This document shows, in pieces, positions 1,390-35,213 of a stretch of 64,000 bases of DNA. The DNA comes from a virus. The translations under genes were made by a program, and so were the position numbers. The number at the start of each line of letters is the position of its first letter. The stretch's first letter is position 1. The stretch is from positions 1-64,000 of IMG/VR virus record IMGVR_UViG_3300030106_006724, one strand, 5' to 3'. The notes beneath the pieces are model-generated. The model did no database searches. It had not been told where the DNA came from and saw nothing but the letters and a program-made list of their open reading frames with translations.

Positions 1390-2715
1390 GTGTTTTATAT
1401 TTCAGAAACGGATTATCAGTTAGAAAGATTAAAAAATTTAGGTAGATTAGGAGCATTTATACATGTTATTTCTTCTAATGATAATTATCACCCTAAATTA
1501 GCTGATACATTAGCAGTTTACATAAGGCCTATTGATAGTAAATACGGATATATTATTCCTATAGATCATGAAGAAGGTTTAAATGTAAAAAAAGAACGTG
1601 TCTACGACCTTTTACAAGGTTTTAGTACTCTATATACTATCGATAAGAAAGAATTGCTATACCACTTTAATATACAGGAGTCTATTGATTTATCTCTTCT
1701 ATACTCTATGGTAAAATTTGATAGGTTAGAATACTCTAAAGAAAATTCTACTATTAATTACTTTTACCATAAACATAGAGATTTTAAAGATATAAATAAA
1801 TTAATTCCTATAAGTAAATTATATGAGTCTTGTGAAAAACTATATGATCAAATAAAAAATGTTATAAAGTATAAAATACCATCAGGTTTTGATTTTTATA
1901 ATACTACTGCTATTAATGTATTTTACTTAATAGAGCAGGCTGGACTAGGAGTTTACTATGAAGCATATAATGAATTATTTAAACCTCGTAATCCTTTATA
2001 TAATACTGTTAATAATACAGTTTTAACTTATTATAATTTATATAATATTACATCTCGACCTACTAACTCGTTTAATAGTGTTAATTATGCTGCTATTCCT
2101 CATTCTGATAAGCATAGAAAAGCTTTTAAACCGTTGAACGACTATTTTGTAGAGTTCGATTTCGATGGTTACCATTTAAGACTATTATGTGATCAAATTG
2201 ATTATCCGCTTAATGAAGAATCTGCTCATAAGCAACTTGCTAAGTTATATTTTAATAAAAAAGAAATTAGTGATGATGAGTATAGTAAAGCTAAGCAGAT
2301 AAACTTTCAGGCTATTTACGGTAAAATACCTGAAGAGCATGCATTTTTAGAAGTTTTTGAAAAAATAGATAAGTTTATTAAAGATTTATGGAAAAAATTT
2401 GAAAAGAAAGGTAAAATTGAAGCTCCTATTAGTAAAAAACCCTTTACTAAGCAGTTAAAAGATATGCATCCGCAAAAATTAATGAATTATGTGATGCAAT
2501 CGTTGGAAACTTCAAGAAATATACTTATCTTAAAAGAAGTACTAAGGTACTTAAAAAATAAAAAATCAAAAATAGTTTTATATACGTATGATTCTATTAC
2601 ATTTGATTTTAGTAAAGAAGATGGAAAAGAAACTTTAGAGGATATTAAAAATATACTAGAAGAAGGTAAAAAATACCCAATAAAGTTTAAATATTCCAAT
2701 AATTTAGTTTTGTAA
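1390..2715 (+). CDS. divergent family A DNA polymerase-like protein
   Basis: This 441-residue protein starts at GTG. Its C-terminal half follows the palm order of family A polymerases. About residues 223-238 (RPTNSFNSVNYAAIP) resemble the TGRLSS...NLQNIP segment. Motif A is EFDFDGYHLRLL (255-266, with Asp). Motif B is AKQINFQAIYG (301-311), and motif C is TYDSI around Asp401. Motif C departs from the usual HDE: His is Tyr and Glu is Ser. The N-terminal half is too diverged to call an active exonuclease. A full-length PolA is encoded at 31925-34252, so this is a second, much reduced copy. It may be an accessory or regulatory relative, or a specialised polymerase. Confidence 0.7.
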   Translation: MFYISETDYQLERLKNLGRLGAFIHVISSNDNYHPKLADTLAVYIRPIDSKYGYIIPIDHEEGLNVKKERVYDLLQGFSTLYTIDKKELLYHFNIQESIDLSLLYSMVKFDRLEYSKENSTINYFYHKHRDFKDINKLIPISKLYESCEKLYDQIKNVIKYKIPSGFDFYNTTAINVFYLIEQAGLGVYYEAYNELFKPRNPLYNTVNNTVLTYYNLYNITSRPTNSFNSVNYAAIPHSDKHRKAFKPLNDYFVEFDFDGYHLRLLCDQIDYPLNEESAHKQLAKLYFNKKEISDDEYSKAKQINFQAIYGKIPEEHAFLEVFEKIDKFIKDLWKKFEKKGKIEAPISKKPFTKQLKDMHPQKLMNYVMQSLETSRNILILKEVLRYLKNKKSKIVLYTYDSITFDFSKEDGKETLEDIKNILEEGKKYPIKFKYSNNLVL

Positions 2716-2737: not shown

Positions 2738-3187
2738 ATGGCAAATGTTGTGGCCTCCAGGTTCGATTACGATTTAGAACCTCTTTATTTAAACGAAGAT
2801 ATGAGTAATAAACTGTTCTGTACTTTTGCTACAGAAGATTCACTTGAGAGTGTACTTAACCAAATTCAAGAACGTTATAAGATTATCTATAATAAGATAT
2901 TCGTTCTTTACTCTAAAAGTCAAGACGAGTATATCTGTACTTATAATGTAGATTTTGGTAATGTAGGCGCATTTTTAGATAATACTATTCTAGTTCATAG
3001 AAAGAAAGAATCTAATACTCTATATACTATCAACGCTTTAAATACATTAATTAAGCAATTAAATGGAGGAGTCTTAGATACTACCTATAAAATAAACTGG
3101 ACAGATTTCAGAAACTGCATACTACTCACTAAAGGTCCAGATCTCAAAAGAATAAATACAAAATTATACAAAATTTTAGAGATATAG
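2738..3187 (+). CDS. hypothetical protein between pol-like and SSB genes
   Basis: 149 residues with no recognised domain. It is a soluble mixed alpha/beta-type sequence without signal peptide or membrane segment. It sits 22 bases after the polymerase-like gene and directly before the promoter of the ssb-uvsX operon, so a replication-related role is plausible from position only. A TTCGATTACG stretch near its start recalls a tRNA T-arm but is coding sequence. Confidence 0.7.
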   Translation: MANVVASRFDYDLEPLYLNEDMSNKLFCTFATEDSLESVLNQIQERYKIIYNKIFVLYSKSQDEYICTYNVDFGNVGAFLDNTILVHRKKESNTLYTINALNTLIKQLNGGVLDTTYKINWTDFRNCILLTKGPDLKRINTKLYKILEI

Positions 3188-3249: not shown

Positions 3250-4053
3250 ATGGATTTAAATGCGATCAAGGCAAAATTAGATGCCTTAAACAACGGTAAT
3301 AATCAGCAAGAAAAAACTGATTATACCAAAATTTTCTGGAGACCTGAATTAGGTAAACAGACAGTTAGAATTGTTCCATCAGCGTTTGACCCTACATTTC
3401 CTTTTAAAGAGTTGAAGTTTCATTACGGTATAGGGAAGTACCCAATGGTAGCTTTATCGAATTTCGGTAAGCAAGACCCTATAGAAGAGTTTGTAAAGGA
3501 ACTTAAAAAGACTTCAGATAAGGATAATTGGTCATTAGCAGGGAAGCTTAACCCGAAAACTAGAATCTTTGCACCTGTAATAGTTAGAGGTGAAGAAGAT
3601 AAAGGTGTAAGGTTATGGGGATTCGGTATTACTATCTACAAAGCATTATTAGCATTAGCTGAAGATGAAGATGTAGGTGATTTTACTGATGTTATAAACG
3701 GTTGGGATATGATTGTTGAACAACAACAAGGTAATCCTTATCCTACTACTTCGGTTAGAATTAAACCTAAGCAATCTCCTTTATCAGATAATAATGATTT
3801 AGTAGATACTTGGTTAAAAACTCAACCTAACCCGGTAGAGGTTCATTCTCAATACGATTATGATTTTATTAAGAAACAACTTCAAAATTATTTGAATCCT
3901 GGATCAGCTGAGGAGAATGCTCCAGCAGCAGGTTCGGAATCAAGTACGCCAGAAAGCTCAGGAAGTCCTCAAAAGACTGACTTTACTTTGGAAACAGCTA
4001 CTGCTGGCAACAAAGATACAGTTAGTAAGTTTGATGATTTATTTAATGAGTAA
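3250..4053 (+). CDS. gp32-like single-stranded DNA-binding protein
   Basis: 267 residues. The core (IFWRPELGKQTVRIVPS, FKELKFHYGIGKYP) matches the OB-fold of T4 gp32-type SSBs found in marine myophages. The C-terminus is Ser/Thr/Pro/Gly-rich and ends in an acidic tip (SKFDDLFNE), the usual interaction tail for replication partners. The Cys/His zinc knuckle of T4 gp32 is not seen. It overlaps uvsX by one base. The likely role is to coat single-stranded DNA at the fork and during UvsX-driven recombination. Confidence 0.85.
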   Translation: MDLNAIKAKLDALNNGNNQQEKTDYTKIFWRPELGKQTVRIVPSAFDPTFPFKELKFHYGIGKYPMVALSNFGKQDPIEEFVKELKKTSDKDNWSLAGKLNPKTRIFAPVIVRGEEDKGVRLWGFGITIYKALLALAEDEDVGDFTDVINGWDMIVEQQQGNPYPTTSVRIKPKQSPLSDNNDLVDTWLKTQPNPVEVHSQYDYDFIKKQLQNYLNPGSAEENAPAAGSESSTPESSGSPQKTDFTLETATAGNKDTVSKFDDLFNE

Positions 4054-5123
4054 TGGCAAAAAAGAAAGAAGTACAACAAAGAGCGACCGCTGCAGTACGT
4101 AAGTCGTTCAATTTAAGCAATTTTAAAAAGAAGAAAGGTTTTTCTAATGCCTCTGTTAAATTTAAAGAACAGGGCTGGATACCACTATCTAAAGCTTTTC
4201 AAGACATTACTTCCCTACCCGGTATACCTACCGGTCACATCACTCTTTTAAGAGGACACAGTGATACGGGCAAAACGACTGCCCTAATAGAAGCTGCGGT
4301 GAGTGCTCAGAAAATGGGCATTCTCCCAGTCTTTATTATTACTGAGATGAAGTGGTCTTGGGAACATGCTAAAGAAATGGGATTAGAAGTAAGCGAGGTA
4401 ACAGATGCTAATGGTACTATCGTTGATTACGAAGGTCATTTTTTATATGCAGATAGAGGTACTCTAAATACTATAGAAGATGTAGCAGTTTATATTGCTG
4501 ACTTAATGGATGAACAAGCAAAAGGAAATCTTCCTTTTGATATGTGTTTTCTATGGGACTCAATAGGATCTGTTCCTTGTGATCTATCAGTACGTTCTAA
4601 TAAGAATAATAATGAATGGAACGCAGGAGCTATGTCTACTCAGTTTGGAAATAACCTAAATCAAAAAATTCTTTTATCTAGAAAAGAAAACTCACCTTAT
4701 ACTAATACTTTAGTAGCTATTAATAAGGTATGGACTATGAAACCTGAATCACCTATGGGTATGCCTAAATTACAAAATAAAGGAGGGATGTCTATGTGGT
4801 ATGATGCTACGTTAGTAGTTACTTTTGGTAATATTACTAACCCAGGTACGTCTAAAATTAAAGCTATTAAGAATGGTATGCAAGTAGAGTTTGCTAAAAG
4901 AACTAACGTTCAAATAGAAAAGAATCATATTGGAGGAGTACAGTCTAGAGGTAGAGTAGTAATGACTCAACATGGTTTTATCCCAGATGATAAAAGAGCG
5001 ATTGATAAGTATAAAGATCAGTATAAAGATCACTGGTTAAAATTAGTTGGTAGCTTAGATTTCGATCTAGTCGAAGAAGGAGATTTAGAAGAAGAAAAAA
5101 TTACTACTAATTTATTAGACTAG
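4053..5123 (+). CDS. uvsX: UvsX/RecA-like recombinase
   Basis: 356 residues. Walker A is GHSDTGKT (68-75), Walker B ends at FLWDS (Asp169), and a Glu in ITEMKW (about 98) fits the catalytic glutamate of RecA-family ATPases. The N-terminus is basic and the C-terminus is acidic (EEGDLEEEK), as in UvsX. It should form filaments on gp32-coated single strands and promote recombination-dependent replication and repair. It sits between SSB and the 5' nuclease in a tight operon. Confidence 0.9.
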   Translation: MAKKKEVQQRATAAVRKSFNLSNFKKKKGFSNASVKFKEQGWIPLSKAFQDITSLPGIPTGHITLLRGHSDTGKTTALIEAAVSAQKMGILPVFIITEMKWSWEHAKEMGLEVSEVTDANGTIVDYEGHFLYADRGTLNTIEDVAVYIADLMDEQAKGNLPFDMCFLWDSIGSVPCDLSVRSNKNNNEWNAGAMSTQFGNNLNQKILLSRKENSPYTNTLVAINKVWTMKPESPMGMPKLQNKGGMSMWYDATLVVTFGNITNPGTSKIKAIKNGMQVEFAKRTNVQIEKNHIGGVQSRGRVVMTQHGFIPDDKRAIDKYKDQYKDHWLKLVGSLDFDLVEEGDLEEEKITTNLLD

Positions 5124-6142
5124 TGGCATACGATAATATACTAAAGAATTTAAAGCAGACCCCACCCCGAGAGCTGAACGATCACATTTTAGTGATCGAT
5201 GCTATGAATATGTTGATTCGTAGCTTTTCCCTGCTCAAAGCAATGAGTCCAACAGGTCACCATATCGGAGGCCTGGTTGGCTTCTTGCGATCTTTAGGAT
5301 ATGTTACTAGAATATTTGACCCTACTAGAGTAGTAGTTGTATGGGACGGTAAAGGAGCTTCCGGAAATCGTCAAAATATAAACCCTGATTATAAAGCTCA
5401 TAGAGCTACTAATAGAATTACACACTGGGGATTATACGATACTAAGCAAGAAGAAACTGAAGCACTAGTAGGTCAATTATTTAGAACTAAAGACTATCTT
5501 GAATGCCTTCCAGTACATCAGATTATGATGGAAAAATTAGAGGCTGATGATATTATAGCTTACTTAGCTCAAGAAGCTACTAAAAATAAAAAGAAATTTA
5601 CTATTATTTCTTCTGATAAAGACTTTTTACAGATGATTAATAAGTACGTAGAGGTCTACGCACCAGTTAAGAAAAAAGTTTATACTATTAAAAATACTAA
5701 AGATGAAATAAAAGTAATACCAGAAAATTATAACTTAGTAAAAGCATTATTAGGTGATAATTCCGATGGGTTAAGAGGGGTAAAAGGTTTAGGTATAAAA
5801 ACTATAGTATCAGAATTTCCTGATGTAGTTAATAAATCTAAAACTAATTTAGATTATATATTTAATATATGTGAAAAAAATATAGAAGGTAAAAAAATCT
5901 TTTCTAAAATTATTCATCAATGGGATAAAGTAGAAACTAACTTTAAATTAATGAATTTACATGAAAGTGTGTTGGATAATAAAGAAAAAGATACTATATT
6001 AGATATTATAAAAAGTGATATACCTGATCTTCAAGCAGGAGCTTTCTTACATCTATTAGATACTGATAGAATAGAAGGTGTAACTAAGAATACTGAAGGT
6101 TGGTTAGAAAACTTTAGGGGTTTAACGGTTTTTAAAAAATAG
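5123..6142 (+). CDS. 5'-3' exonuclease / flap endonuclease-like nuclease
   Basis: 339 residues starting at GTG, with TAGTG overlap with uvsX. Features of the PIN/FEN superfamily are visible: an early Asp (VIDAMN, about 26), WDGKG near 77, LEADDII, SSDKDF, and a helix-3-turn-helix DNA-binding segment (GDNSDGLRGVKGLGIKT). Such enzymes remove RNA primers and flaps, as T4 RNase H or the PolA N-terminal domain does. The phage PolA lacks this domain, so this gene likely supplies it in trans. Confidence 0.88.
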   Translation: MAYDNILKNLKQTPPRELNDHILVIDAMNMLIRSFSLLKAMSPTGHHIGGLVGFLRSLGYVTRIFDPTRVVVVWDGKGASGNRQNINPDYKAHRATNRITHWGLYDTKQEETEALVGQLFRTKDYLECLPVHQIMMEKLEADDIIAYLAQEATKNKKKFTIISSDKDFLQMINKYVEVYAPVKKKVYTIKNTKDEIKVIPENYNLVKALLGDNSDGLRGVKGLGIKTIVSEFPDVVNKSKTNLDYIFNICEKNIEGKKIFSKIIHQWDKVETNFKLMNLHESVLDNKEKDTILDIIKSDIPDLQAGAFLHLLDTDRIEGVTKNTEGWLENFRGLTVFKK

Positions 6143-6148
6143 GTTATT

Positions 6149-7495
6149 ATGACATTAAAAAGTCTTCAACAGTACGGTAAAGCATTTCAATTAAAAGTGC
6201 TTGGATCGTTGCTTACTGATAAGACATTTCTATTAAACGTTAGAGATGTACTTTACCCAGATTATTTTGATGCTGATTCTCATAAATGGATCATATCTCA
6301 AATTATAGAATATTTTGATCAGTATCACACGATAATTACTATGGATGTTCTTAAAGTTGAACTACATAAAGTGGAAAATGAAGTATTGCAAGTAGCATTA
6401 AAAGAAGAATTAAGAAACTCTTATGCATCATCTCAAGACGATTTAGAATACGTACAAGAGGAATTTACTAATTTTTGTAAGAATCAAGAAATGAAAAATG
6501 CTATTTTGAATTCAGCTGATTTACTTAAGTTAGGAGATTTTGATGGTATAAGAAACTTAGTAGAAAAAGCTATTAAAGCTGGAATGGATAAAAATATAGG
6601 ACATGAATATAATAAAGATGTTGAAACTAGGTATAGGGTTGATTACAGGCCTACTATTCCTTCTCCTTGGCCGATTCTTAATGAAGGAATTCAAGGAGGC
6701 TTCGGACCGGGCGACTTAGGAATTATTTTCGGTAGCCCTGGTGGTGGTAAATCTTGGACTATGGTTGCAATTGCAGCTCACGCAGTTCAGTTAGGTCATA
6801 AAGTTAATTACTATACTTTAGAATTAGGAGAAGATTATGTAGGTAAAAGATTTGACTGTTATTTTACAGGTTATAGTATTGATGAAATAAATAAACATAG
6901 AAAAGACGTTCAAACGTATGTTGATAATTTAAAAGGTAAATTAATAGTAAAAGAATACCCTCCTAAAGGTGCTTCTATTTCTACTATTAAAGCTCACGTA
7001 CAGAAATGTATTGATATGGATCATAAACCTGATATGATAATTATTGATTACGTTGATTATTTAAGAGCTCCTTCTAAAAGTAAATACTCAGAACGTAAAG
7101 ATGAGATTGATGATAATTTTATAGCTACTAAAGGTTTAGCTAAAGATTTAAAAATTCCTATTCTTACTCCTTCTCAAGTAAATAGAATGGGTGCTAGAGA
7201 TAGTATTATTGAAGGAGATAAAGCAGCAGGATCTTATGATAAAATGATGGTAGCAGATGTTTGTTTATCGCTATCAAGAATGAAAGAAGATAAAGTACTA
7301 GGAACTGGTAGAATACATGTTATGAAAAATAGATATGGTCAAGACGGTATGACGTATAATATTAAAATGGATACTAATAATGGACATATTGATTTCGAAG
7401 GTAAAACCGATCCTGCAGAACTAATAGTTGACGAGTCAAAACCTACTTTTAATCTAGATAGTCAGACTATGTCAAAAATATTTGAAAATAAATAA
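6149..7495 (+). CDS. DnaB/gp41-like replicative helicase
   Basis: 448 residues. The N-terminal helical domain is followed by a RecA-type SF4 helicase core with Walker A GSPGGGKS (195-202) and a Walker B-like DMIIIDYVDYL. It should be the ring helicase that unwinds the fork. No primase domain is fused and no separate primase is seen in the window. It is the last gene of the ssb-uvsX-nuclease-helicase run and is followed by a hairpin that may terminate transcription. Confidence 0.9.
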   Translation: MTLKSLQQYGKAFQLKVLGSLLTDKTFLLNVRDVLYPDYFDADSHKWIISQIIEYFDQYHTIITMDVLKVELHKVENEVLQVALKEELRNSYASSQDDLEYVQEEFTNFCKNQEMKNAILNSADLLKLGDFDGIRNLVEKAIKAGMDKNIGHEYNKDVETRYRVDYRPTIPSPWPILNEGIQGGFGPGDLGIIFGSPGGGKSWTMVAIAAHAVQLGHKVNYYTLELGEDYVGKRFDCYFTGYSIDEINKHRKDVQTYVDNLKGKLIVKEYPPKGASISTIKAHVQKCIDMDHKPDMIIIDYVDYLRAPSKSKYSERKDEIDDNFIATKGLAKDLKIPILTPSQVNRMGARDSIIEGDKAAGSYDKMMVADVCLSLSRMKEDKVLGTGRIHVMKNRYGQDGMTYNIKMDTNNGHIDFEGKTDPAELIVDESKPTFNLDSQTMSKIFENK

Positions 7496-10489: not shown

Positions 10490-11763
10490 CAATTAAAAAC
10501 GGTACAATATTTGTACAGATAGCAAGTTATAGAGACCCAGAATTAAGACCTACATTAGCTGATTTATTAGATAAAGCTGATAATCCTGATAGATTAAAAG
10601 TATGTGTTGCATGGCAACATACCTCAGAAGATGAATGGGATAAATTAGATGAATATTTAAATGATGATAGATTTATAATTTTAGATATTCCTCACAATGA
10701 AACTAACGGTACTTGCTGGGCTAGAAACAAAATACAAACAAAATACAATGGAGAAGATTATACTCTCCAGTTAGATTCTCATCATAGATTTGTAAAAGGA
10801 TGGGATAGCAAATGTATAAGAATGATAAAACAGTTAGAAAAAAAAGGACATAAAAAACCTTTATTAACTGGTTATATTCCTTCTTATAATCCTAAGAATG
10901 ATCCTGAAGATAGAGTTCAATCACCATGGAAAATGGATTTTGATAGATTTACACCTGAAGGGGTAGTATTTTTCTTACCCGCCACTATAGATGATTGGAA
11001 AGAAAGAACCGAACCAGTTCCTGCTAGATTCTTTTCTGCGCATTTTACTTTTACTTTAGGAATTTTTTGTAATGAAGTACAACATGACCCTAAATATTAT
11101 TTTCATGGTGAAGAAATAGCTTTAGCAGTTAGAGCATATACACATGGATATGATTTATTCCATCCTCATAGAATTATAGCATGGCATGAGTATACTAGAG
11201 TAGGTAGATCTAAGCATTGGGATGATGATAATTCCTGGGTTGAAAGAAATAAAACTACTTTTTATAGGTTAAAAGGTTTATTAGGTACTGATGGTACTAC
11301 ATGTACTCCTTGTATGAAAAAACAATTAGTTCCTTATTACTTAGGAGAAGAAAGATCTTTAGAAGATTATCAAAAATATGCAGGTATAAGATTTACTGAT
11401 AGAGGTATACAGCAGTATACATTAGATAAAAAAGGTTATCCACCTAATCCTGAAGTAGATGATTACGATAATTCGTTCCATTCAGTATTTAGACACTGTA
11501 TAGATATTCACATTAACGATGTTCCTGAAACTGATTATGAATTCTGGGCAGTAGCTTTTCATGATGGAGAAGGAAATGAGCTTTTTAGGCATGATGCTAG
11601 TAAGGAAGAAATAGCTAGTTTAAAAGCTACTAAAAAAGATGGTTGGATTAATTTATGGAGAGAGTATACTGGTCCTTTACCTGCTAGTTGGAGTGTATGG
11701 CCATATTCTACAAGTAAAGAATGGTGTAAGAGGTTAGAAGGTAAATTAGGTATAGAAAAATAA
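10486..11763 (+). CDS. GlcNAc-transferase-like glycosyltransferase
   Basis: 425 residues. The N-terminal about 270 residues match the family of UDP-GlcNAc-dependent transferases related to Skp1 GlcNAc-transferase (FVQIASYRDPEL at the start, LQLDSHHRF as the metal/nucleotide site, WHEYTR further on). The last about 150 residues are an added domain I do not recognise. The acceptor cannot be told from sequence. It opens a run of glycan genes with a carbamoyltransferase and two HtrL-like proteins. Possible acceptors are virion protein, host surface glycan or modified DNA. Confidence 0.8.
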   Translation: MTIKNGTIFVQIASYRDPELRPTLADLLDKADNPDRLKVCVAWQHTSEDEWDKLDEYLNDDRFIILDIPHNETNGTCWARNKIQTKYNGEDYTLQLDSHHRFVKGWDSKCIRMIKQLEKKGHKKPLLTGYIPSYNPKNDPEDRVQSPWKMDFDRFTPEGVVFFLPATIDDWKERTEPVPARFFSAHFTFTLGIFCNEVQHDPKYYFHGEEIALAVRAYTHGYDLFHPHRIIAWHEYTRVGRSKHWDDDNSWVERNKTTFYRLKGLLGTDGTTCTPCMKKQLVPYYLGEERSLEDYQKYAGIRFTDRGIQQYTLDKKGYPPNPEVDDYDNSFHSVFRHCIDIHINDVPETDYEFWAVAFHDGEGNELFRHDASKEEIASLKATKKDGWINLWREYTGPLPASWSVWPYSTSKEWCKRLEGKLGIEK

Positions 11764-13346
11764 TGGCTAATATAGCGTTTTATGGATCACATAATGCTGC
11801 TGTAGCTGTTGAACAAAATGGTAAAGTTCTAACGGTTATAGAGATTGAAAGATTTTTGAATACTAAAAACGCAGGATACGGTCAATACCTCATATCTTAT
11901 ACTCGACCAAAATTAATCAATTATATTTTAGATTATATTTATAGGACCTACGGTATTAAAACATACGATACTTGTTACTATCAAAATACCGATACTATAG
12001 AAGGTTCTAAAGGAAAAGTACATTACGAAAAATTAATACCTGCTAAAAACTATGTTGATTGTTTACATCATTATAGTCATGCAGCTAGTGGTTTATATCA
12101 AACTGATTATGAAAAAGCATTAATAATATCATTTGATGGAGGAGGAAATGATGGTTATTTTAATATTTACCATGCTAAAAATAGGAATGAAATAGAAATA
12201 CTTTATAAAGAAAATTTAGATTTAGGTTTCCCTTATATGATTTTTGGTAATTACTTAAATGATATTAAAATGGAACCTGCTCTTAATATAGGTAATCTAG
12301 TATATTCAGGTAAATTAATGGGTTTATGTTCTTATGGTAAAGTTAATCAAGAATGGTTACCACATTTTAAAAAGTTTTATTTAAGTAAACCTGATGGAGA
12401 AAATTATATAGAATTATTAAAAGTACTTTCTAAAAATACTGGGTTAAAATTTGATACTGAAGATAGGTTAAAAGATCAACTAGCATACGATGTAGCAGCA
12501 ACTTCTCAAGAAGCTTTTGAACAAATATTTTTTCAATATACTGAATCATATATTAAAGAGTACTCTAACATACCTATAATATTAGTAGGAGGTTGCGCAT
12601 TAAATATTATTCTTAATAGTAAGGTTAAAAGTAAATATAAAAGAGAAGTTTTTATACCACCGAATCCTAATGATTGCGGATTAGCTTCTGGTATGATTTT
12701 AAATCATATAAAACCTAAAAAAGCTATAGATTTGACTTATTCTGGAACTGAAGTATTAGATAAAGATATGTTAATGTATTATGTAGAAAATAAAAGAGGT
12801 AGTGAAACTAATCTTAAAGAGTTATGCAATGATTTAAATGAAGGTAGCATAGTAGGAGTTGTAAGAGGACAGTCTGAGCACGGACCTAGAGCATTAGGTA
12901 ACAGAAGTATTATTTGTAACCCAGGTATTGAGAATATGAAAGATATTCTTAACGAAAAAGTTAAAAAAAGAGAATGGTACCGTCCATTTGCTCCTGTATG
13001 TAAACTTGAAGATGTAAATAAGTATTTTAACTTTCAAGGAGAAAGCAGATTTATGAGTTTTTGCCCTACTGTAAAAGCTAAATGGAGAAAAAAACTTTCT
13101 TCTATAACTCATGTAGATAATACAGCAAGAATACAAACAGTAACCAAAGAACAGAATGAATGGCTATATAATTTACTTACTGAATTTGAAAAAGTATCAG
13201 GATATGGAGTTTTATTAAATACTTCTTTTAACGTTAACGGTAAACCTATACTTTCTAGTTATTCAGATGCAATAAAAGTATTTCAAGATTCTGATATGGA
13301 TAAATTAATTTTAGAAAATTATTATTTTAGATGGAAACACGTTTAG
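11763..13346 (+). CDS. NodU/CmcH-type O-carbamoyltransferase (copy 1)
   Basis: 527 residues with the two-part architecture of the family: an N-terminal ASKHA/Kae1-like domain (HHYSHAASGLY, ISFDGGGNDG) and a C-terminal YrdC-like domain (GQSEHGPRALGNRSI, REWYRPFAPV). The family uses carbamoyl phosphate and ATP to carbamoylate hydroxyls, for instance on sugars. It lies between glycosyltransferases, so a sugar hydroxyl is the likely acceptor. A second member is encoded at 20688, diverged enough to suggest a different acceptor. Confidence 0.88.
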   Translation: MANIAFYGSHNAAVAVEQNGKVLTVIEIERFLNTKNAGYGQYLISYTRPKLINYILDYIYRTYGIKTYDTCYYQNTDTIEGSKGKVHYEKLIPAKNYVDCLHHYSHAASGLYQTDYEKALIISFDGGGNDGYFNIYHAKNRNEIEILYKENLDLGFPYMIFGNYLNDIKMEPALNIGNLVYSGKLMGLCSYGKVNQEWLPHFKKFYLSKPDGENYIELLKVLSKNTGLKFDTEDRLKDQLAYDVAATSQEAFEQIFFQYTESYIKEYSNIPIILVGGCALNIILNSKVKSKYKREVFIPPNPNDCGLASGMILNHIKPKKAIDLTYSGTEVLDKDMLMYYVENKRGSETNLKELCNDLNEGSIVGVVRGQSEHGPRALGNRSIICNPGIENMKDILNEKVKKREWYRPFAPVCKLEDVNKYFNFQGESRFMSFCPTVKAKWRKKLSSITHVDNTARIQTVTKEQNEWLYNLLTEFEKVSGYGVLLNTSFNVNGKPILSSYSDAIKVFQDSDMDKLILENYYFRWKHV

Positions 13347-16550: not shown

Positions 16551-17402
16551 ATGGCAAAAAATGCTGTTTTATCATTAAGTGGAGGAATGGATTCTTCTAC
16601 GTTATTGTTACATTTACTAAGAGAAGGTTATAATGTAACTGCACTCTCTTTTGATTATGGTCAAAAGCATAGAGTTGAATTAGAAAGAGCTCAAGCTCTA
16701 GTTGATTACGTTAATAGTAACTGTAATCAAGTTGTAGGTACTGAACCTGATACAGGTGCAACTATTGCAAAATTAAAATATATGCCTGTTAATTATCAAG
16801 TGATTAAGATTGATGGAATTACTAATTTACTAAATTCTGCTTTAGTAGAAGGTGGAGATGATGTTCCGGAAGGTCATTATGAGCAAGATAATATGAAAGA
16901 AACTGTAGTTCCTAATAGGAATAAGATATTTTCTTCTTTAACGCAAGCTGTAGCTCTGTCTATTGCTAATAAAACTGGAGAAGATACCTATATATCATTA
17001 GGAATACATGCTGGAGATCATGCAGTTTACCCTGATTGTAGACAAGAATTTAGAGATGCTGATATGGAAGCGTTTCAAATAGGTAACTGGGATGCTGATA
17101 GAGTTAAATTCTATACTCCTTATCTAGAAATAGATAAATACGGAATACTTCAGGATGGACAAGAAAGTTGTTTAAGTTTAAATATTGATTTTAATGAGGT
17201 CTATAGTAGAACTAATACTTCTTATAAGCCTTACCCTTCTGGTAATAGCGATTATAAGTCTGCTAGTAGTGTGGAGCGTATCGAAGCTTTTATTAAACTG
17301 GGTATCGCAGATCCTGTTCAATACGAAGACGAGACTGGACCAGTGGATTACGAAGTAGCTAAAAATCATGTTGAAAAGGTTCTTGCTGAATATGCAGGAT
17401 AA
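16551..17402 (+). CDS. queC: QueC-like 7-cyano-7-deazaguanine (preQ0) synthase
   Basis: 283 residues. The PP-loop SGGMDSS (10-16) and the SFDYGQKHRVEL segment identify QueC, which turns 7-carboxy-7-deazaguanine into preQ0 with ATP and ammonia. Where bacterial QueC carries four zinc-binding cysteines before a VERxEAF-like segment, this protein has Ser, Asp and Ala (TSY...SDYKSASSVERIEAF), so the structural zinc site appears lost. It supplies preQ0 to QueF (29669) and DpdA (26955). It sits apart from the other que genes, behind the thioredoxin promoter. Confidence 0.85.
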   Translation: MAKNAVLSLSGGMDSSTLLLHLLREGYNVTALSFDYGQKHRVELERAQALVDYVNSNCNQVVGTEPDTGATIAKLKYMPVNYQVIKIDGITNLLNSALVEGGDDVPEGHYEQDNMKETVVPNRNKIFSSLTQAVALSIANKTGEDTYISLGIHAGDHAVYPDCRQEFRDADMEAFQIGNWDADRVKFYTPYLEIDKYGILQDGQESCLSLNIDFNEVYSRTNTSYKPYPSGNSDYKSASSVERIEAFIKLGIADPVQYEDETGPVDYEVAKNHVEKVLAEYAG

Positions 17403-20533: not shown

Positions 20534-20688
20534 TTAAAATAGATGTAAAAAAAGGTGATACTATTTTAGTAGGTCGCTTTAAAAATAAAAGAACTAAAGT
20601 AAAAACTATAGAGTATGATGAATTCGGTATGCCTATAATAAACGGTAGACCTGCTTGTACTTTTAGACTAGTAAAAAACCCAAGATAA
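20530..20688 (+). CDS. small hypothetical protein, 52 residues
   Basis: An ATGA overlap with the upstream gene and a TAATG overlap with the carbamoyltransferase gene support this 52-residue frame (MIKIDVKKGDTILVG at the start, ending RLVKNPR). It looks like a small beta-barrel, SH3-like, judging by alternating hydrophobic/charged strands. Function unknown. Confidence 0.65.
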   Translation: MIKIDVKKGDTILVGRFKNKRTKVKTIEYDEFGMPIINGRPACTFRLVKNPR

Positions 20689-22346
20689 TGTTACAATTAG
20701 GAATATCAGCCTTTTACCATGATTCTGCAGCTTGTATAGTTAAACATGGCGAAGTATTAGCAGCAGCTGAAGAAGAAAGATTTACTGAAATAAAACACGA
20801 TTCTTCTTTCCCTATTAATGCAATAGCATATGTATTATCAGAAGTAGGTATAGAAGATATAAACGATATAGATGAAGTATGTTGGTATGAAAAACCTAAA
20901 GTTAAAAAAAATAGGGTACTTAGAACGTTTAACAAGCATTTTTTCAAAACTTTTAAAAATAGACTTATTTTTCTTTATAACTATTATTTTAATTCTCCTA
21001 AAAATTTACTTAAACGTCATTTCCAATATAAAGGTATAATTAAATATACTGATCATCATTTATCTCATGCCGGTTTTAGTTATTATACCAGTCCTTTTAA
21101 AAATGCTGCTATTTTAACTGTAGACGGTGTTGGAGAATGGGAAACTATTACTATTTCTAAAGGTGAAGGTGCTGATATTACTAAAATGTATAGTATAGAC
21201 TTTCCTAATTCTTTAGGTATGCTGTATTCAACTGTAACAGCATTTCTAGGATTTAAACCTAACGAAGGAGAATACAAAGTTATGGGTTTAGCTCCTTTTG
21301 GAGATCCTTTAAAATATATTAATAAGCTATCTAAAATATTCGATAGAAAAGGTAATATTGATCAAAAATACTTTACATGGGAATATTCTGAAAAAATAAT
21401 GTTCAATATAGAATTTTGTAAACTTTTAGGATTACCTCCTAGATTTAAAGAAGAACCTATAACTCAAGATCATAAAGATTTAGCAGCAGCATTACAAAAA
21501 GTATACGAAAGAGAATTTGAAAAATTAGTACATAAAGCAAAAAAGTTAACTGGATCCCCTAATATTTGCTTAGGAGGCGGCTGCGCTTATAACGGAGTAG
21601 CTAATGTACTTGCCTATAATCATTTTAGATCAGTATATATTCCTTTTGCTCCTTCTGATGCTGGGTCTGCTATAGGAGCTTGTCTAATAAATAATCCTAT
21701 CTCAGGGTATGCAACTGATAATGGTTGTCCTTATTTAGGTAATGGTTATACTAATGAAGAAATTGAAAATATATTAGATAATTACAAAGATAAAGTTAAA
21801 GTACAATTATTTAATGAGAGTACTCTATTAGAAAAAACAGCTGAAATAATTAACGATCAGAAGATAGTTGCTTGGTTTCAAGGAAGAATGGAATTCGGTG
21901 CAAGAGCATTAGGAAATAGATCAATATTAGCTTCTCCTAGGGATGCAAGTATGAGAGATAAACTAAATAGAGTAATTAAAAAGAGAGAAGGATTTAGACC
22001 TTTTGCTCCTTCAGTTACAGTTAATCAAGCTTCTAAATGGTTTAATTTAAAACAAAGCGTACCGTATATGAATATAGTTTTACAAGCTAAGACTAATAAG
22101 TTTAAAGCAGCAACTCATATAGATGGATCATGTAGAGTACAGACAGTTGATAAATATCGAAATCCATTATATTTTAAACTAATAAAAGAAATAGGTAAAA
22201 AATCAGGTGCTGAAGTAGTTTTAAATACTTCATATAATCTAAAGGACCAGACTATTACTAGAACACCTCAACAAGCTATAGAAAGATTTTTAGATTCAGA
22301 TATAGATAATTTAGTTATAAATAAATTTTTAATTAGTAAAAAATGA
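20688..22346 (+). CDS. NodU/CmcH-type O-carbamoyltransferase (copy 2)
   Basis: 552 residues. It is a canonical member: GISAFYHDSAAC at the N-terminus, HHLSHAGFSYY, TVDGVGEWET, and in the C-terminal YrdC-like domain FGARALGNRSIL and REGFRPFAPSV. It is closer to the bacterial NodU/antibiotic-carbamoylation type than the copy at 11763. Its direct neighbour downstream is a sulfotransferase-like gene, an association typical of glycan decoration. Confidence 0.9.
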   Translation: MLQLGISAFYHDSAACIVKHGEVLAAAEEERFTEIKHDSSFPINAIAYVLSEVGIEDINDIDEVCWYEKPKVKKNRVLRTFNKHFFKTFKNRLIFLYNYYFNSPKNLLKRHFQYKGIIKYTDHHLSHAGFSYYTSPFKNAAILTVDGVGEWETITISKGEGADITKMYSIDFPNSLGMLYSTVTAFLGFKPNEGEYKVMGLAPFGDPLKYINKLSKIFDRKGNIDQKYFTWEYSEKIMFNIEFCKLLGLPPRFKEEPITQDHKDLAAALQKVYEREFEKLVHKAKKLTGSPNICLGGGCAYNGVANVLAYNHFRSVYIPFAPSDAGSAIGACLINNPISGYATDNGCPYLGNGYTNEEIENILDNYKDKVKVQLFNESTLLEKTAEIINDQKIVAWFQGRMEFGARALGNRSILASPRDASMRDKLNRVIKKREGFRPFAPSVTVNQASKWFNLKQSVPYMNIVLQAKTNKFKAATHIDGSCRVQTVDKYRNPLYFKLIKEIGKKSGAEVVLNTSYNLKDQTITRTPQQAIERFLDSDIDNLVINKFLISKK

Positions 22347-23300: not shown

Positions 23301-23561
23301 ATGAAAAAAGACGTATTAAAGGTTATAGAAAAAGAACTCTACGATAGAGATCTAAGATACAATTCACACAAAGAAGTTAACCTCGAAAACTTACCGAATA
23401 CCACCGAATATCCGGATGCTAAATTACACCAGATAATATCATTTATAAAATCTGGTATTAGGATAGCAGCTTGTATTGCTGGTATTATGGGCTACATATG
23501 GATTGGTTTCTTAGGACTTGCTATTGCAGAGGTAGTTGGTATAATAGAAGAATTAGTTTAG
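23301..23561 (+). CDS. small membrane protein
   Basis: 86 residues. The first about 45 are charged and the last about 40 are hydrophobic with many Gly/Ala/Ile (IAACIAGIMGYIWIGFLGLA), giving one long or two short membrane helices. No recognised family. First gene after a promoter, upstream of queD. Possible roles include superinfection exclusion or lysis timing, but nothing in the sequence decides. Confidence 0.65.
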   Translation: MKKDVLKVIEKELYDRDLRYNSHKEVNLENLPNTTEYPDAKLHQIISFIKSGIRIAACIAGIMGYIWIGFLGLAIAEVVGIIEELV

Positions 23562-23563
23562 TT

Positions 23564-24040
23564 ATGAATAAGAATAAATTTTTATCTACAAAAGTATTTG
23601 ATGGATTTAGTACAGTATTTCGTCAATGGAAAGCAGAAACTACTCACTGTAAATTTTTACACGGATATGGAGTATCTTTTAAGATTTGGTTCGAAGGGGA
23701 ATTAGATGAAAGAAACTGGGTATGGGATTTCGGTGGAATGAAAAGAGCCAAAGGAACTATTGATGGTAGATCTCCTAAAGAGTGGTTTGATTATATGTTT
23801 GATCATACATTTATAGTAGCAGAAGATGATCCATATTTAGAATCTTTTAATAAGATGGACGATGCTGAAGTTGCACAGGTTAGAGTAGTAGAAGCAACTG
23901 GAGCTGAAAAATTTGCTGAATTAGTTTATTATAAAGTTAATGAATTCATTACTTTAGAAACTGAAGGCAGAGTAAAAATAGCGAGAGTAGAATTTAGAGA
24001 GCACGGTAAAAATAGTGCTATATTTGAACCTAGTATATAA
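23564..24040 (+). CDS. queD: QueD-like 6-carboxytetrahydropterin synthase
   Basis: 158 residues from ATG 23564; a longer frame upstream only overlaps the membrane gene. The catalytic Cys lies in HCKFLHGYG, and WDFGGMK, FDHTF and EATGAEKFAE match the PTPS/QueD family. It would convert dihydroneopterin triphosphate from FolE2 to 6-carboxytetrahydropterin. The usual zinc-binding HGH is HGY here, and the early zinc His (F-x-AAH in E. coli) aligns with a non-His residue, so metal binding may differ. Confidence 0.8.
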   Translation: MNKNKFLSTKVFDGFSTVFRQWKAETTHCKFLHGYGVSFKIWFEGELDERNWVWDFGGMKRAKGTIDGRSPKEWFDYMFDHTFIVAEDDPYLESFNKMDDAEVAQVRVVEATGAEKFAELVYYKVNEFITLETEGRVKIARVEFREHGKNSAIFEPSI

Positions 24041-31924: not shown

Positions 31925-34252
31925 ATGCAATTAGAGAAAAAATACTATACCGTTCAAGATAATGAAACTCTTGAACTCTTATATAAACATATTGAATCGT
32001 CTGATATACTAGCTGTCGATACTGAAACTTCTGGTCTTAATCCTCGTAAAGATAAAATAGTTGGTTGGTCAGTATCTGGCGACGAAGGTGTAGGGTTTTA
32101 CCTACCTACCTTAGTTTGGAACTTTGATAAAGATGAATTAGAACTTCAAACTATTAACGGTAAATCTACTGAAACTATATCTAAAAACTTTATGAGAATG
32201 CTAAAAGGTAAAAAATTAGTATTTCATAATGCTTCGTTTGACTGTCAGTTTATTAAAAATTATTTTGGAGTAGATCTTATTGAAGATATATGGGTTGATA
32301 CTGGTCTATTAGTTCATACTGTATATGAAGAAGGTGCGTTTGGTTATGGTAATCCTTTTGGTTTGAAACCTATTGCTATAATGAATCAGAAAGAATTAGG
32401 TTTAGATGTAGAAAAAGCTGCTAACGAAGAGCAATTAGAACTTAAAGGCTCTATAAAGAAAAATGGCGGTCAGACTACTAAGTTACTATTTGAGATTTAT
32501 AAAGCTGATTTAGATATTCTATCTAAGTATGCTTCTGCCGATACCGATTTAACTTTACGTATATGTAACTTATATCTAAAGAAATTAAAAGAAGAAGGGC
32601 TAGAGAAGTTTTTCTTTGAAGAAGAAGTTATGCCGATATATAGAGAAGTAACTGTTCCTATGGAATCTGCAGGTGTTGATTTAGATGTAGAACTAATAGA
32701 AAAGACTCATAAAGAGATTAGCGAAGACTTAATTAAAAATAAAGAGATAGTAATGAAATCTTTATTAGCTATTTCTGAAGTTAAAGAATGGGTATTAGGT
32801 ACTGCATTAAGTAACTACCCTGTATCTCATAAAGGTAACTGGGCTCAGAATTTGGTTACTCGTTATTCTTTACCTTTACCTAAGTCTGAAAAAACTGGTA
32901 AGTATTCTCTTACTAGTAAAAATATAGAAGAGTTAGAGGAATCTAATGTTAAGCAGTTTTTACTTACTGGTGATACTGATCTTATAGAAGATGTAGAAAA
33001 AGCTCGTATATCGATGGCTATGTGGAAAGAATCTAATGATGGAGAGTATATTAATATTCAATCTAAGAAGCATTTAGGTGAAATAGTATTTAAGTATATG
33101 GGTATTAAACCTAAAGTAGCTGGTGCTAATACTAAATCTGGTAGAGCTAAGTTTGATATGGATATGGTAGAAGAACTAGCGAAAGAATATCCTTGGGCTG
33201 AAAACTTAAGAATATATAATAAACTACTTAAGATTAAATCTACTTATGTAGATAGGTTTAGAGATAGAAATGAAGATGGTAAATATTATTTTTACTTTAA
33301 GCAGAATGGTACTGTATCTGGTCGATATGGATCTGATGCTCAACAGTTACCTAAACCTTTAGAAGAAGGTGAAGATGCTCCTATTATTATGAAGTATGTT
33401 AATATAGTAAGGGCTTTCTTAGTAGCCGGTAAAGGTAGAAAAGTTATTGATGCTGATTACGAATCATTAGAACCTCATTGCTTTGCCTCAGTATCTGGTG
33501 ATAAAAAACTTCAAGAAATATTCGATAATGGTTGGGACTTTTATTCTTATGTCGCTATTCAAACTGAAAAGCTTGATGGAGTATCTGCTGATAAAAAAGC
33601 TGATAACTACCTTAAAAAATTAGATCCTGTTAAAAGAAATAAAGCTAAAGCTTATTCTTTAGGAGTTGCATATGGAATGGAAGCTTATGCTCTTAAAATG
33701 ACTTTAGGAGTAGATCAAAAGACTGCTGAAGGATTAATAAAGGGTTACTTAGATGGTTTTCCTGGTTTAAGAGATTGGAGAGAAAACTCTCGTAGGCAAG
33801 TAAAAGATCATGGTTTTATTAAAAATTATGTTGGTCGTATAAGGCACGTACCTAAGGTAAAAAAGATTTATGAAAAGTTTGGTGAAAAGATGATGGATTG
33901 GAGGTTTAGAAAAGACTTAGAGAATCAAGGATATAATAGAGATGATATAGTTAAGGTTTATAGAGATTACCGTAATGGATTAAACTTCTGCCTTAACTTT
34001 CAATTACAATCTTTAGCTGCAGCGGTAGTAAATAGAGCTGCTGTAGTTATTAATAGGACTGCTAGAGAAAAAGGCTTCGATGCTTTCGTTCAAGCACAAG
34101 TACATGACCAGTTAATTATAAACGTGAAAGACGATCAAGCTGAAGCCTTTGCTCCTTTAGTTCAAGAGATTATGGAAAATACTACTAAGTTACCTGGAGT
34201 AACTTTAAAAGCTCCTCCTGAAATAGCTAATAACTGGAGAGACGGACATTAA
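31925..34252 (+). CDS. polA: DNA polymerase I (family A) with 3'-5' exonuclease
   Basis: 775 residues. The exonuclease domain is intact: DTE (32-34), HNASFD (101-106) and YASADTD (202-208). Polymerase motif A is DADYESLEPHCF (509-520) and motif B is RNKAKAYSLGVAYG (571-584). Motif C is VHDQL (726-730), with Gln for the usual Glu. The residue equal to E. coli Phe762 is Leu579. No 5' nuclease domain; the gene at 5123 can supply it. It is the main replicative polymerase. Another, reduced family A-like gene lies at 1390. Confidence 0.93.
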   Translation: MQLEKKYYTVQDNETLELLYKHIESSDILAVDTETSGLNPRKDKIVGWSVSGDEGVGFYLPTLVWNFDKDELELQTINGKSTETISKNFMRMLKGKKLVFHNASFDCQFIKNYFGVDLIEDIWVDTGLLVHTVYEEGAFGYGNPFGLKPIAIMNQKELGLDVEKAANEEQLELKGSIKKNGGQTTKLLFEIYKADLDILSKYASADTDLTLRICNLYLKKLKEEGLEKFFFEEEVMPIYREVTVPMESAGVDLDVELIEKTHKEISEDLIKNKEIVMKSLLAISEVKEWVLGTALSNYPVSHKGNWAQNLVTRYSLPLPKSEKTGKYSLTSKNIEELEESNVKQFLLTGDTDLIEDVEKARISMAMWKESNDGEYINIQSKKHLGEIVFKYMGIKPKVAGANTKSGRAKFDMDMVEELAKEYPWAENLRIYNKLLKIKSTYVDRFRDRNEDGKYYFYFKQNGTVSGRYGSDAQQLPKPLEEGEDAPIIMKYVNIVRAFLVAGKGRKVIDADYESLEPHCFASVSGDKKLQEIFDNGWDFYSYVAIQTEKLDGVSADKKADNYLKKLDPVKRNKAKAYSLGVAYGMEAYALKMTLGVDQKTAEGLIKGYLDGFPGLRDWRENSRRQVKDHGFIKNYVGRIRHVPKVKKIYEKFGEKMMDWRFRKDLENQGYNRDDIVKVYRDYRNGLNFCLNFQLQSLAAAVVNRAAVVINRTAREKGFDAFVQAQVHDQLIINVKDDQAEAFAPLVQEIMENTTKLPGVTLKAPPEIANNWRDGH

Positions 34253-34262
34253 AATTAATTAT

Positions 34263-35213
34263 ATGATTAGAACAGCAGAATGTATAACACCTAAGCATCC
34301 AGATAAAATCTGTGATAGAATATCAGATGCTATTTTAGATGCATGTTTAAAGCAGGATCCTAATACAAGAGCTGCTATAGAAACTATGGGAGGTCACGGA
34401 ATTATAACCGTAACCGGCGAACTAACTACAACAGCCTTTGTTGATATTCCGGAAGTAGTAAAATCAGTATACGGTAAAGATATAGGAGTACAAACCAATA
34501 TAGTAATGCAATCACCAGAAATAGCTCAAGGAGTAGATACTGGCGGAGCAGGTGATCAAGGTATTATGATAGGATATGCTTGTACTGAAAATGATGAAAT
34601 GGTACCTCTAGAGTATTATTTTGCAAGAAAGTTATGTGAATCTATCTATATAAATCATCCTTATGATGGAAAAACTCAAGTTACTATATTAGAAGATGAT
34701 TCATTAAATGTAGTAGCATCGTTTCAAAATACTTCTACTGAAGACTTAATACATCATATAAAAGATTTCTTTGCAGAAACAAATTATACCATCAATTCTC
34801 TACATTGCAACCCAGCTGGAGAATGGAATTTAGGAGGCTTTGATGCTGATACAGGATTAACAGGAAGAAAATTAGCTGTAGATAACTATGGTCCTAGAAT
34901 ACCTTTAGGTGGAGGAGCTTTTAGCGGTAAGGATAGTTCTAAAGTAGATAGATCAGCAGCATATATGGCTAGAAGAATAGCTACAGACTATATAGGAAAA
35001 TATAAAGCTAGTGAAGTTTATGTAACTCTAGCTTATGCTATAGGACATGATAAACCTTTACAAGCTACAGCTTTAGTAGATGGAAAAGAAATTTATATAA
35101 ACGACTATGATTTATCTCCAAAAGGAATAGTAGAGTTTTTAGGTTTAAAACAACCTATTTTCTACGAAACTTCTAAATGGGGGCATATGGGAAAAAACTT
35201 TTCATGGAATTAG
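34263..35213 (+). CDS. metK: S-adenosylmethionine synthetase
   Basis: 316 residues, about 70 shorter than bacterial MetK (about 385). Conserved elements: TPKHPDKICDRISDAILD, GGAGDQGIMIGYA, NYGPRIPLGGGAFSGKD and DRSAAYMARR. It makes SAM from methionine and ATP. Radical SAM QueE uses SAM in this phage, and adenine from SAM products could be recycled by the genes at 38943-39967. It follows polA by 10 bases and ends at the Hsp20 promoter. Confidence 0.88.
   Translation: MIRTAECITPKHPDKICDRISDAILDACLKQDPNTRAAIETMGGHGIITVTGELTTTAFVDIPEVVKSVYGKDIGVQTNIVMQSPEIAQGVDTGGAGDQGIMIGYACTENDEMVPLEYYFARKLCESIYINHPYDGKTQVTILEDDSLNVVASFQNTSTEDLIHHIKDFFAETNYTINSLHCNPAGEWNLGGFDADTGLTGRKLAVDNYGPRIPLGGGAFSGKDSSKVDRSAAYMARRIATDYIGKYKASEVYVTLAYAIGHDKPLQATALVDGKEIYINDYDLSPKGIVEFLGLKQPIFYETSKWGHMGKNFSWN

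What the first reader, a model, noticed from the sequence alone, without database searches (positions are those of the whole stretch)
1390..2715. Second, reduced family A polymerase with changed motif C
The 441-residue protein has motifs A (FDFDGYHLRLL) and B (AKQINFQAIYG) but motif C is TYDSI in place of HDE. It keeps a Phe at the 762 position, while the phage main PolA has Leu. Two family A genes in one phage, one degenerate, suggest an accessory subunit, a specialised repair or modified-base polymerase, or relic duplication.
Basis: partly seen in the sequence, partly recalled or inferred. Interest (0 to 1): 0.65.

Follow-up and report, generated by a model that had tools for sequence, protein, structure and literature searches.

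The report
Small second phage DNA polymerase (divPolA1)
Besides its ordinary DNA polymerase this marine phage carries a second, stripped-down one that belongs to a group published in 2024 (divPolA1); it looks like a working, specialised enzyme with an unusual fixed active site, and it is always followed by the gene of one small unknown protein that is probably its partner.

Summary
ORF 1390-2715 (441 aa) is a second, reduced family A polymerase, and the phage's main PolA lies at 31925-34252. It belongs to divPolA1, described in 2024 (Virol J 21:200, PMC11348598): palm catalytic residues kept, thumb truncated, 3'-5' exonuclease inactivated, encoded beside a regular PolA, PolB or PolC. So the kind is known.

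'Degenerate' is misleading. Both catalytic aspartates and the residues matching R668, K758, F762, Y766, N845 and Q849 are invariant or nearly so in 155 non-redundant relatives. Equally fixed are changes at three other active-site positions: His for steric-gate Glu710, Tyr for Arg754, Tyr for His881. dN/dS is 0.09-0.18. Relic status, recent duplication of the main PolA, and a deazaguanine role are not supported.

Not stated in the paper's text: the next gene (2738-3187, 149 aa) is an obligate companion. It occurs in the same six of 50,697 phage records, and in all 81 separately found loci with enough upstream sequence.

Most likely this is an active, non-proofreading, low-processivity polymerase that fills gaps or extends recombination intermediates within the gp32-UvsX-FEN-DnaB module, together with that partner. 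Activity, role and complex are inferred: a fused AlphaFold model did not confirm contact.

The parts
1390..2715 (+). divPolA1-type second family A polymerase, 441 aa: inactivated exonuclease-like domain (about 1-165), truncated thumb (about 166-222), palm and fingers (223-441)
   Evidence: Pfam DNA_pol_A 1.6e-10; AF2 pLDDT 93.4, pTM 0.90; VIA-align Z 26.9 to Bst Pol I large fragment over residues 1-441
2056..2058 (+). R223 codon, equivalent of R668 (TSRPTN)
   Evidence: invariant in 155 of 155 non-redundant relatives
2158..2175 (+). Motif A: D257 (=D705), D259, H262 (=E710 steric-gate position)
   Evidence: D257 and H262 154/154, D259 145/154
2281..2319 (+). Motif B: Y298 (=R754), K302 (=K758), F306 (=F762), Y310 (=Y766)
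   Evidence: all 155/155
2485..2499 (+). N366 (=N845) and Q370 (=Q849)
   Evidence: 154/155 and 155/155
2587..2592 (+). Motif C: Y400 (=H881), D401 (=D882)
   Evidence: 155/155 each
2738..3187 (+). Obligate companion, 149 aa, unknown family; predicted beta-alpha-beta4-alpha-beta3
   Evidence: same six phage records as divPolA1; divPolA1 upstream in 81 of 81 testable loci; no Pfam or PHROG family
3250..4053 (+). gp32-like ssDNA-binding protein
   Evidence: PHROG 1192 7.5e-18, Pfam gp32 2.3e-9
4053..5123 (+). UvsX-like recombinase
   Evidence: PHROG 97 8.5e-15
5123..6142 (+). 5'-3' exonuclease (FEN / T4 RNase H type)
   Evidence: Pfam 5_3_exonuc_N 1.1e-30
6149..7495 (+). DnaB-type replicative helicase (gp41-like)
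   Evidence: PHROG 19 1.4e-74
31925..34252 (+). Main PolA, 775 aa, exonuclease motifs present, Leu at the 762 position
   Evidence: Pfam DNA_pol_A 1e-59; motif alignment

Best explanation
The gene encodes a divPolA1-family polymerase. SHOWN BY SEQUENCE OR PREDICTION: a Pol I large-fragment fold with an inactivated exonuclease domain and shortened thumb; both metal-binding aspartates kept; a fixed, non-standard nucleotide pocket (His at 710, Tyr at 754, Tyr at 881); strong purifying selection; constant linkage to one small companion gene and then gp32, UvsX, 5'-3' exonuclease and DnaB helicase, whatever the family of the main DNA polymerase. INFERRED: it is catalytically active but non-proofreading and of low processivity, is recruited by the companion protein and the replication/recombination module, and does short-patch synthesis: filling gaps left by the 5'-3' exonuclease at Okazaki fragments or repair sites (the exonuclease and this polymerase together acting like a split Pol I), or extending UvsX-made D-loops, while the regular DNAP copies the bulk of the genome.
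For: Fold: pLDDT 93.4, Z 26.9 over residues 1-441. Catalytic residues invariant. Exonuclease acids replaced. dN/dS 0.09-0.18. Linkage with gp32/UvsX/FEN/DnaB in marine, freshwater and jumbo phages. The main DNAP varies: PolA in the window, immuto and two more marine records; PolB in Mel-JY01 and six freshwater contigs; PolB-like pieces plus PolC in LR756508. DnaG-type primase is present in immuto, Mel-JY01, LR756508 and one 177-kb contig, so priming is already covered. Family description in PMC11348598.
Against: No biochemistry exists in the paper read. R754, which contacts the dNTP triphosphate in Pol I (own knowledge), is replaced by Tyr in every member, which could mean weak or altered nucleotide use. 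Nothing separates gap filling from D-loop extension, lesion bypass or a structural role. The fused AF2 model of polymerase plus companion had pTM 0.70 against 0.90 for the polymerase alone, so contact was not shown.
Confidence: 0.5

Rival explanations
1. It is the module's constant replicative polymerase, and the variable 'regular' DNAP is the specialised one.
For: divPolA1 keeps its replication neighbourhood while the regular DNAP changes family and neighbourhood (PMC11348598).
Against: No proofreading acids and a shortened thumb are unlikely for copying a 160-480 kb genome. The main PolA is full length with intact exonuclease motifs.
Confidence: 0.12
2. It is a translesion or error-prone polymerase, by analogy with other second polymerases whose proofreading domain is inactivated (APEX/PolA2, PolB2).
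For: Inactivated exonuclease and changed nucleotide pocket; precedent in PMC12926913.
Against: Position at the head of the core replication module rather than a damage-inducible unit. No lesion-linked gene was identified next to it.
Confidence: 0.15
3. It makes or extends RNA: a primer polymerase or single-subunit RNA polymerase, since the Glu710 steric gate is replaced by His in all members.
For: H262 invariant. Glu710 is the rNTP gate in Pol I (PMC13228545). Small residue (Ser/Ala) after the motif C Asp.
Against: A separate DnaG-type primase exists in the complete genomes. F762 and Y766 are kept. His is bulky and could still gate. Ser/Ala after the Asp also occurs in ordinary phage PolAs.
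Confidence: 0.08
4. It is a non-catalytic pseudo-polymerase that acts as a structural or regulatory subunit.
For: R754, H881 and E883 positions changed; thumb reduced; exonuclease site lost.
Against: Both catalytic Asp, K758, Y766, R668 and Q849 equivalents are invariant in 155 non-redundant relatives, which a pseudo-enzyme need not keep. It cannot be specific for PolA since the main polymerase varies.
Confidence: 0.12
5. Relic duplication of the main PolA.
For: Same superfamily, same genome.
Against: dN/dS 0.09-0.18; the main PolA is less similar to it than E. coli Pol I, T7 gp5 and other phage PolAs are; present in phages whose main DNAP is PolB or PolC.
Confidence: 0.01

Closest known systems
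divPolA1 (Virol J 2024 21:200, PMC11348598; type: Flavobacterium phage immuto gp001)
   Same: 62% identity over all 441 residues to immuto gp001; same fold, lost exonuclease, truncated thumb, same replication neighbourhood, second gene beside a regular DNAP.
   Different: Nothing of substance: this is a member. The paper's text does not mention the invariant His710/Tyr754/Tyr881 signature or the obligate companion gene; its figures and supplements could not be read here.
E. coli / Bst DNA polymerase I large fragment (family A)
   Same: Fold (Z 26.9 to Bst), motif positions, R668/D705/K758/F762/Y766/N845/Q849/D882 kept.
   Different: Exonuclease acids lost, thumb shortened, E710 to His, R754 to Tyr, H881 to Tyr.
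APEX / PolA2 (Actinobacteria; PMC12926913)
   Same: A second PolA with an inactivated 3'-5' exonuclease domain.
   Different: Bacterial and Actinobacteria-specific, reported to carry a beta-clamp motif (QxxLF) in the vestigial exonuclease domain; not compared by sequence here.
divPolA2 (barbaviruses and others; AUR84708)
   Same: Diverged, thumb-less, exonuclease-less extra phage PolA.
   Different: Variable neighbourhood and an unrelated N-terminal domain (PMC11348598). In my alignment it does not share the His710/Tyr754/Tyr881 signature (alignment weak).
T4 gp32-UvsX-RNase H-gp41 gene set
   Same: Same gene set downstream.
   Different: T4 has genes 59 and 33 next to 32, where these phages have the companion and divPolA1; no profile match between the companion and gp33, gp59, gp45, RpbA or RegA.

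Membership tests
divPolA1 | Sequence kinship to the type protein (immuto gp001) | tested here: met
   tblastn 61.7% over 100%, E 2e-171
divPolA1 | Encoded in addition to a regular DNAP of family A, B or C | tested here: met
   Main PolA at 31925-34252; PolB or PolC in relatives
divPolA1 | Palm with main catalytic residues conserved | tested here: met
   D257 and D401 invariant
divPolA1 | Thumb truncated | tested here: met
   Only two short helices (167-181, 190-197) between the exonuclease-like domain and R223 in the AF2 model
divPolA1 | 3'-5' exonuclease acids replaced | tested here: met
   No acidic residue at D355, E357 or D501 positions; D424 position falls in a gap
divPolA1 | Conserved replication genes downstream | tested here: met
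   gp32, UvsX, 5'-3' exonuclease, DnaB in order
divPolA1 | DNA polymerase activity | not testable with these tools
   No assay reported in the section of the paper read
Canonical family A DNA polymerase (Pol I-like) | Pfam DNA_pol_A above curated cut-off and Pol I fold | tested here: met
   40.9 bits against 34.3; Z 26.9
Canonical family A DNA polymerase (Pol I-like) | Glu at the steric gate (E710), Arg754 and HD in motif C | tested here: not met
   His, Tyr and YD, all invariant. It is a diverged member, not a canonical one.
Sliding clamp (companion protein 2738-3187) | Clamp-domain sequence or fold | tested here: inconclusive
   Order of helices and strands resembles one clamp domain (resemblance from own knowledge), but no profile match to T4 gp45, and no clamp-loader gp44 match in immuto or G001; the domain could not be fold-searched alone

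The most novel reading that the evidence does not exclude
divPolA1 and the companion protein form a dedicated two-subunit polymerase whose nucleotide pocket (His steric gate, no Arg754) has been rebuilt for a non-standard job, such as RNA-tolerant primer extension. The companion (one clamp-domain-like unit of about 125 residues) takes over the role of the missing thumb or of a clamp. This would be a polymerase holoenzyme type not yet described, constant in phages that swap their main DNAP.
Probability: 0.15. Interest if true: 0.8.

Novelty: new member of a known kind. Interest (0 to 1): 0.42.

Why it matters
divPolA1 was known from 14 phage genomes and has no tested function that I could find. 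That turns 'a diverged PolA of unknown role' into a concrete two-protein system that can be expressed and assayed, in phages whose main DNA polymerase changes while this one stays. It also gives a natural family with histidine at the sugar-discriminating position of family A.

Tried and rejected
Primase substitute: made unlikely by a DnaG-type primase in immuto, Mel-JY01, LR756508 and a 177-kb contig. Deazaguanine link: QueC only in the marine lineage; freshwater records at most sub-threshold. Duplicate of main PolA: rejected. Companion as T4 gp33, gp59, gp45, RpbA or RegA homologue: no profile support, though each T4 side was a single sequence. Companion in PDB sequences: none. Companion by fold: Foldseek and VIA lists were filled by Pol I, so the companion part was not tested; the only informative row was an uncharacterised phage homologue, TM 0.88. 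Complex by AF2 on a chain reading both ORFs through the stop codons (L064): pTM 0.70, inconclusive. T4-type clamp in these phages: PF02916 finds none although T4 itself rings. The LR756508 protein as query in viral contigs: nothing. The AF2 models give no coordinates here, so active-site geometry was not measured.

Full report
OBSERVATION. ORF 1390-2715 (+) encodes 441 residues with a GTG start. Pfam DNA_pol_A matches residues 227-429 at E 1.6e-10; PHROGs has no proper family for it (best E 0.0014). The window is part of an 89,200-base virus record. The main PolA, 775 aa, is at 31925-34252.

IDENTITY. A literature search showed that this is divPolA1, described in 2024 (PMC11348598): an extra, diverged PolA found in Flavobacterium phage immuto and related genomes (14 in all) that also carry a regular PolA, PolB or PolC, with conserved palm residues, truncated thumb and inactivated exonuclease. 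The window protein is 61.7% identical to immuto gp001 over its whole length. Immuto carries both the 441-aa and the 777-aa PolA. All the structural features of divPolA1 that I could test are met (see membership test).

STRUCTURE. AlphaFold2 on 49 aligned relatives gave pLDDT 93.4 and pTM 0.90. The best PDB matches are Pol I large fragments: VIA-align Z 26.9, rmsd 4.2 A, 412 residues aligned over model residues 1-441, to Bst Pol I; Foldseek agrees. Residues 1-165 are therefore a 3'-5' exonuclease-like domain whose acidic residues are gone, and only two short helices stand where the thumb should be. Six positions in that dead domain (H34, Y44, H60, K87, D100, P140) are nonetheless invariant, so it has probably been given another job (inference).

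ACTIVE SITE. In 155 non-redundant relatives, spanning a marine lineage, a freshwater lineage including Microcystis phage Mel-JY01, and a 484-kb phage (between-lineage identity about 25-30%), the following are invariant or nearly so: R223 (R668), D257 (D705), K302 (K758), F306 (F762), Y310 (Y766), N366 (N845), Q370 (Q849) and D401 (D882). Three substitutions are equally fixed: H262 at the E710 position, Y298 at R754 and Y400 at H881. Eleven of twelve active-site positions fall among the 32 invariant columns of 441 (p 5e-13). E710 is the sugar steric gate of Pol I (PMC13228545). dN/dS against close relatives is 0.09-0.18, so this is not a relic.

NEIGHBOURHOOD. Downstream, in order, come the companion ORF, gp32-like SSB, UvsX-like recombinase, 5'-3' exonuclease and DnaB-type helicase. 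The order is kept in Mel-JY01 and largely in the jumbo phage, with some inserted genes. The regular DNAP varies: PolA in the window, immuto and two further marine records; PolB in Mel-JY01 and six freshwater contigs; PolB-like pieces and PolC in LR756508. This agrees with the paper and shows that divPolA1 cannot be an accessory specific to PolA.

COMPANION GENE. ORF 2738-3187 (149 aa) has no Pfam or PHROG family. By tblastn it occurs in exactly the same six of 50,697 phage records as the divPolA1 relatives, leaving aside weak hits to ordinary PolAs. Searched on its own in IMG/VR and bacterial genome contigs, it had divPolA1 upstream in all 81 of these loci that held enough sequence; the three without it stop short of that position, and nearly all divPolA1 loci without a companion end within about 300 bases of the gene. 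It is more conserved than the polymerase (70% against 62% to immuto). The lists keep only the best 80 hits, so a distant companion without divPolA1 is not excluded. Its predicted fold (beta-alpha-beta4-alpha-beta3) recalls a single sliding-clamp domain (own knowledge), but T4 gp45 gave no profile match, and a gp44-like clamp loader was found only in the PolB phages, not in immuto or G001. I leave this as a lead. A chain reading both ORFs through the stop codons was folded to look for contact: pTM 0.70, not conclusive.

ORIGIN. The protein is less similar to the phage's own main PolA (30/224 identities) than to T7 gp5 (47/223) or E. coli Pol I (44/227), and profile comparison with the main PolA finds nothing significant. 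A rough tree groups all divPolA1 sequences together, away from the main PolAs (long branches, low weight). It is not a recent duplicate of the resident PolA.

FUNCTION. Most likely it is an active but non-proofreading, low-processivity polymerase used for short-patch synthesis within the recombination/replication module, possibly acting with the neighbouring 5'-3' exonuclease as a split Pol I. Active-site conservation, fold, linkage and selection are shown; activity, substrate and complex formation are inferred. The changed nucleotide pocket leaves open an unusual substrate choice, and R754Y leaves open weak activity. A primase role is made unlikely by separate DnaG-type primases, and a deazaguanine role by the absence of a clear QueC outside the marine lineage.

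VERDICT. Real, correctly seen, and a member of a published family. What this work adds is the breadth of the family, the invariant active-site signature, and the inseparable companion gene.

Noticed in passing
2738-3187: 149-aa protein of unknown family that is inseparable from divPolA1 across IMG/VR, phage records and bacterial bins, and more conserved than it.
   Followed up: yes
31925-34252: Main PolA has Leu at the 762 position; leucine-type viral PolAs form known monophyletic clades (PMC13228545).
   Followed up: partly
477-1343: 288-aa protein just upstream of divPolA1 without a clear family, with relatives upstream of divPolA1 in 65 of 82 marine loci and some freshwater ones.
   Followed up: no
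11763-13346 and 20688-22346: Two carbamoyltransferase (NodU-like) genes in one phage (Pfam N and C domains).
   Followed up: no
16551-17402, 23471-24040: QueC and QueD-like (PTPS) genes of a 7-deazaguanine pathway; immuto carries the full set with DpdA.
   Followed up: partly
34263-35213: Compact (316 aa) S-adenosylmethionine synthetase directly after the main PolA, with a shortened central-domain match; not annotated at that place in immuto.
   Followed up: no
L083 (LR756508.1): 484-kb phage carrying divPolA1, PolB-like pieces in more than one frame, and PolC.
   Followed up: no
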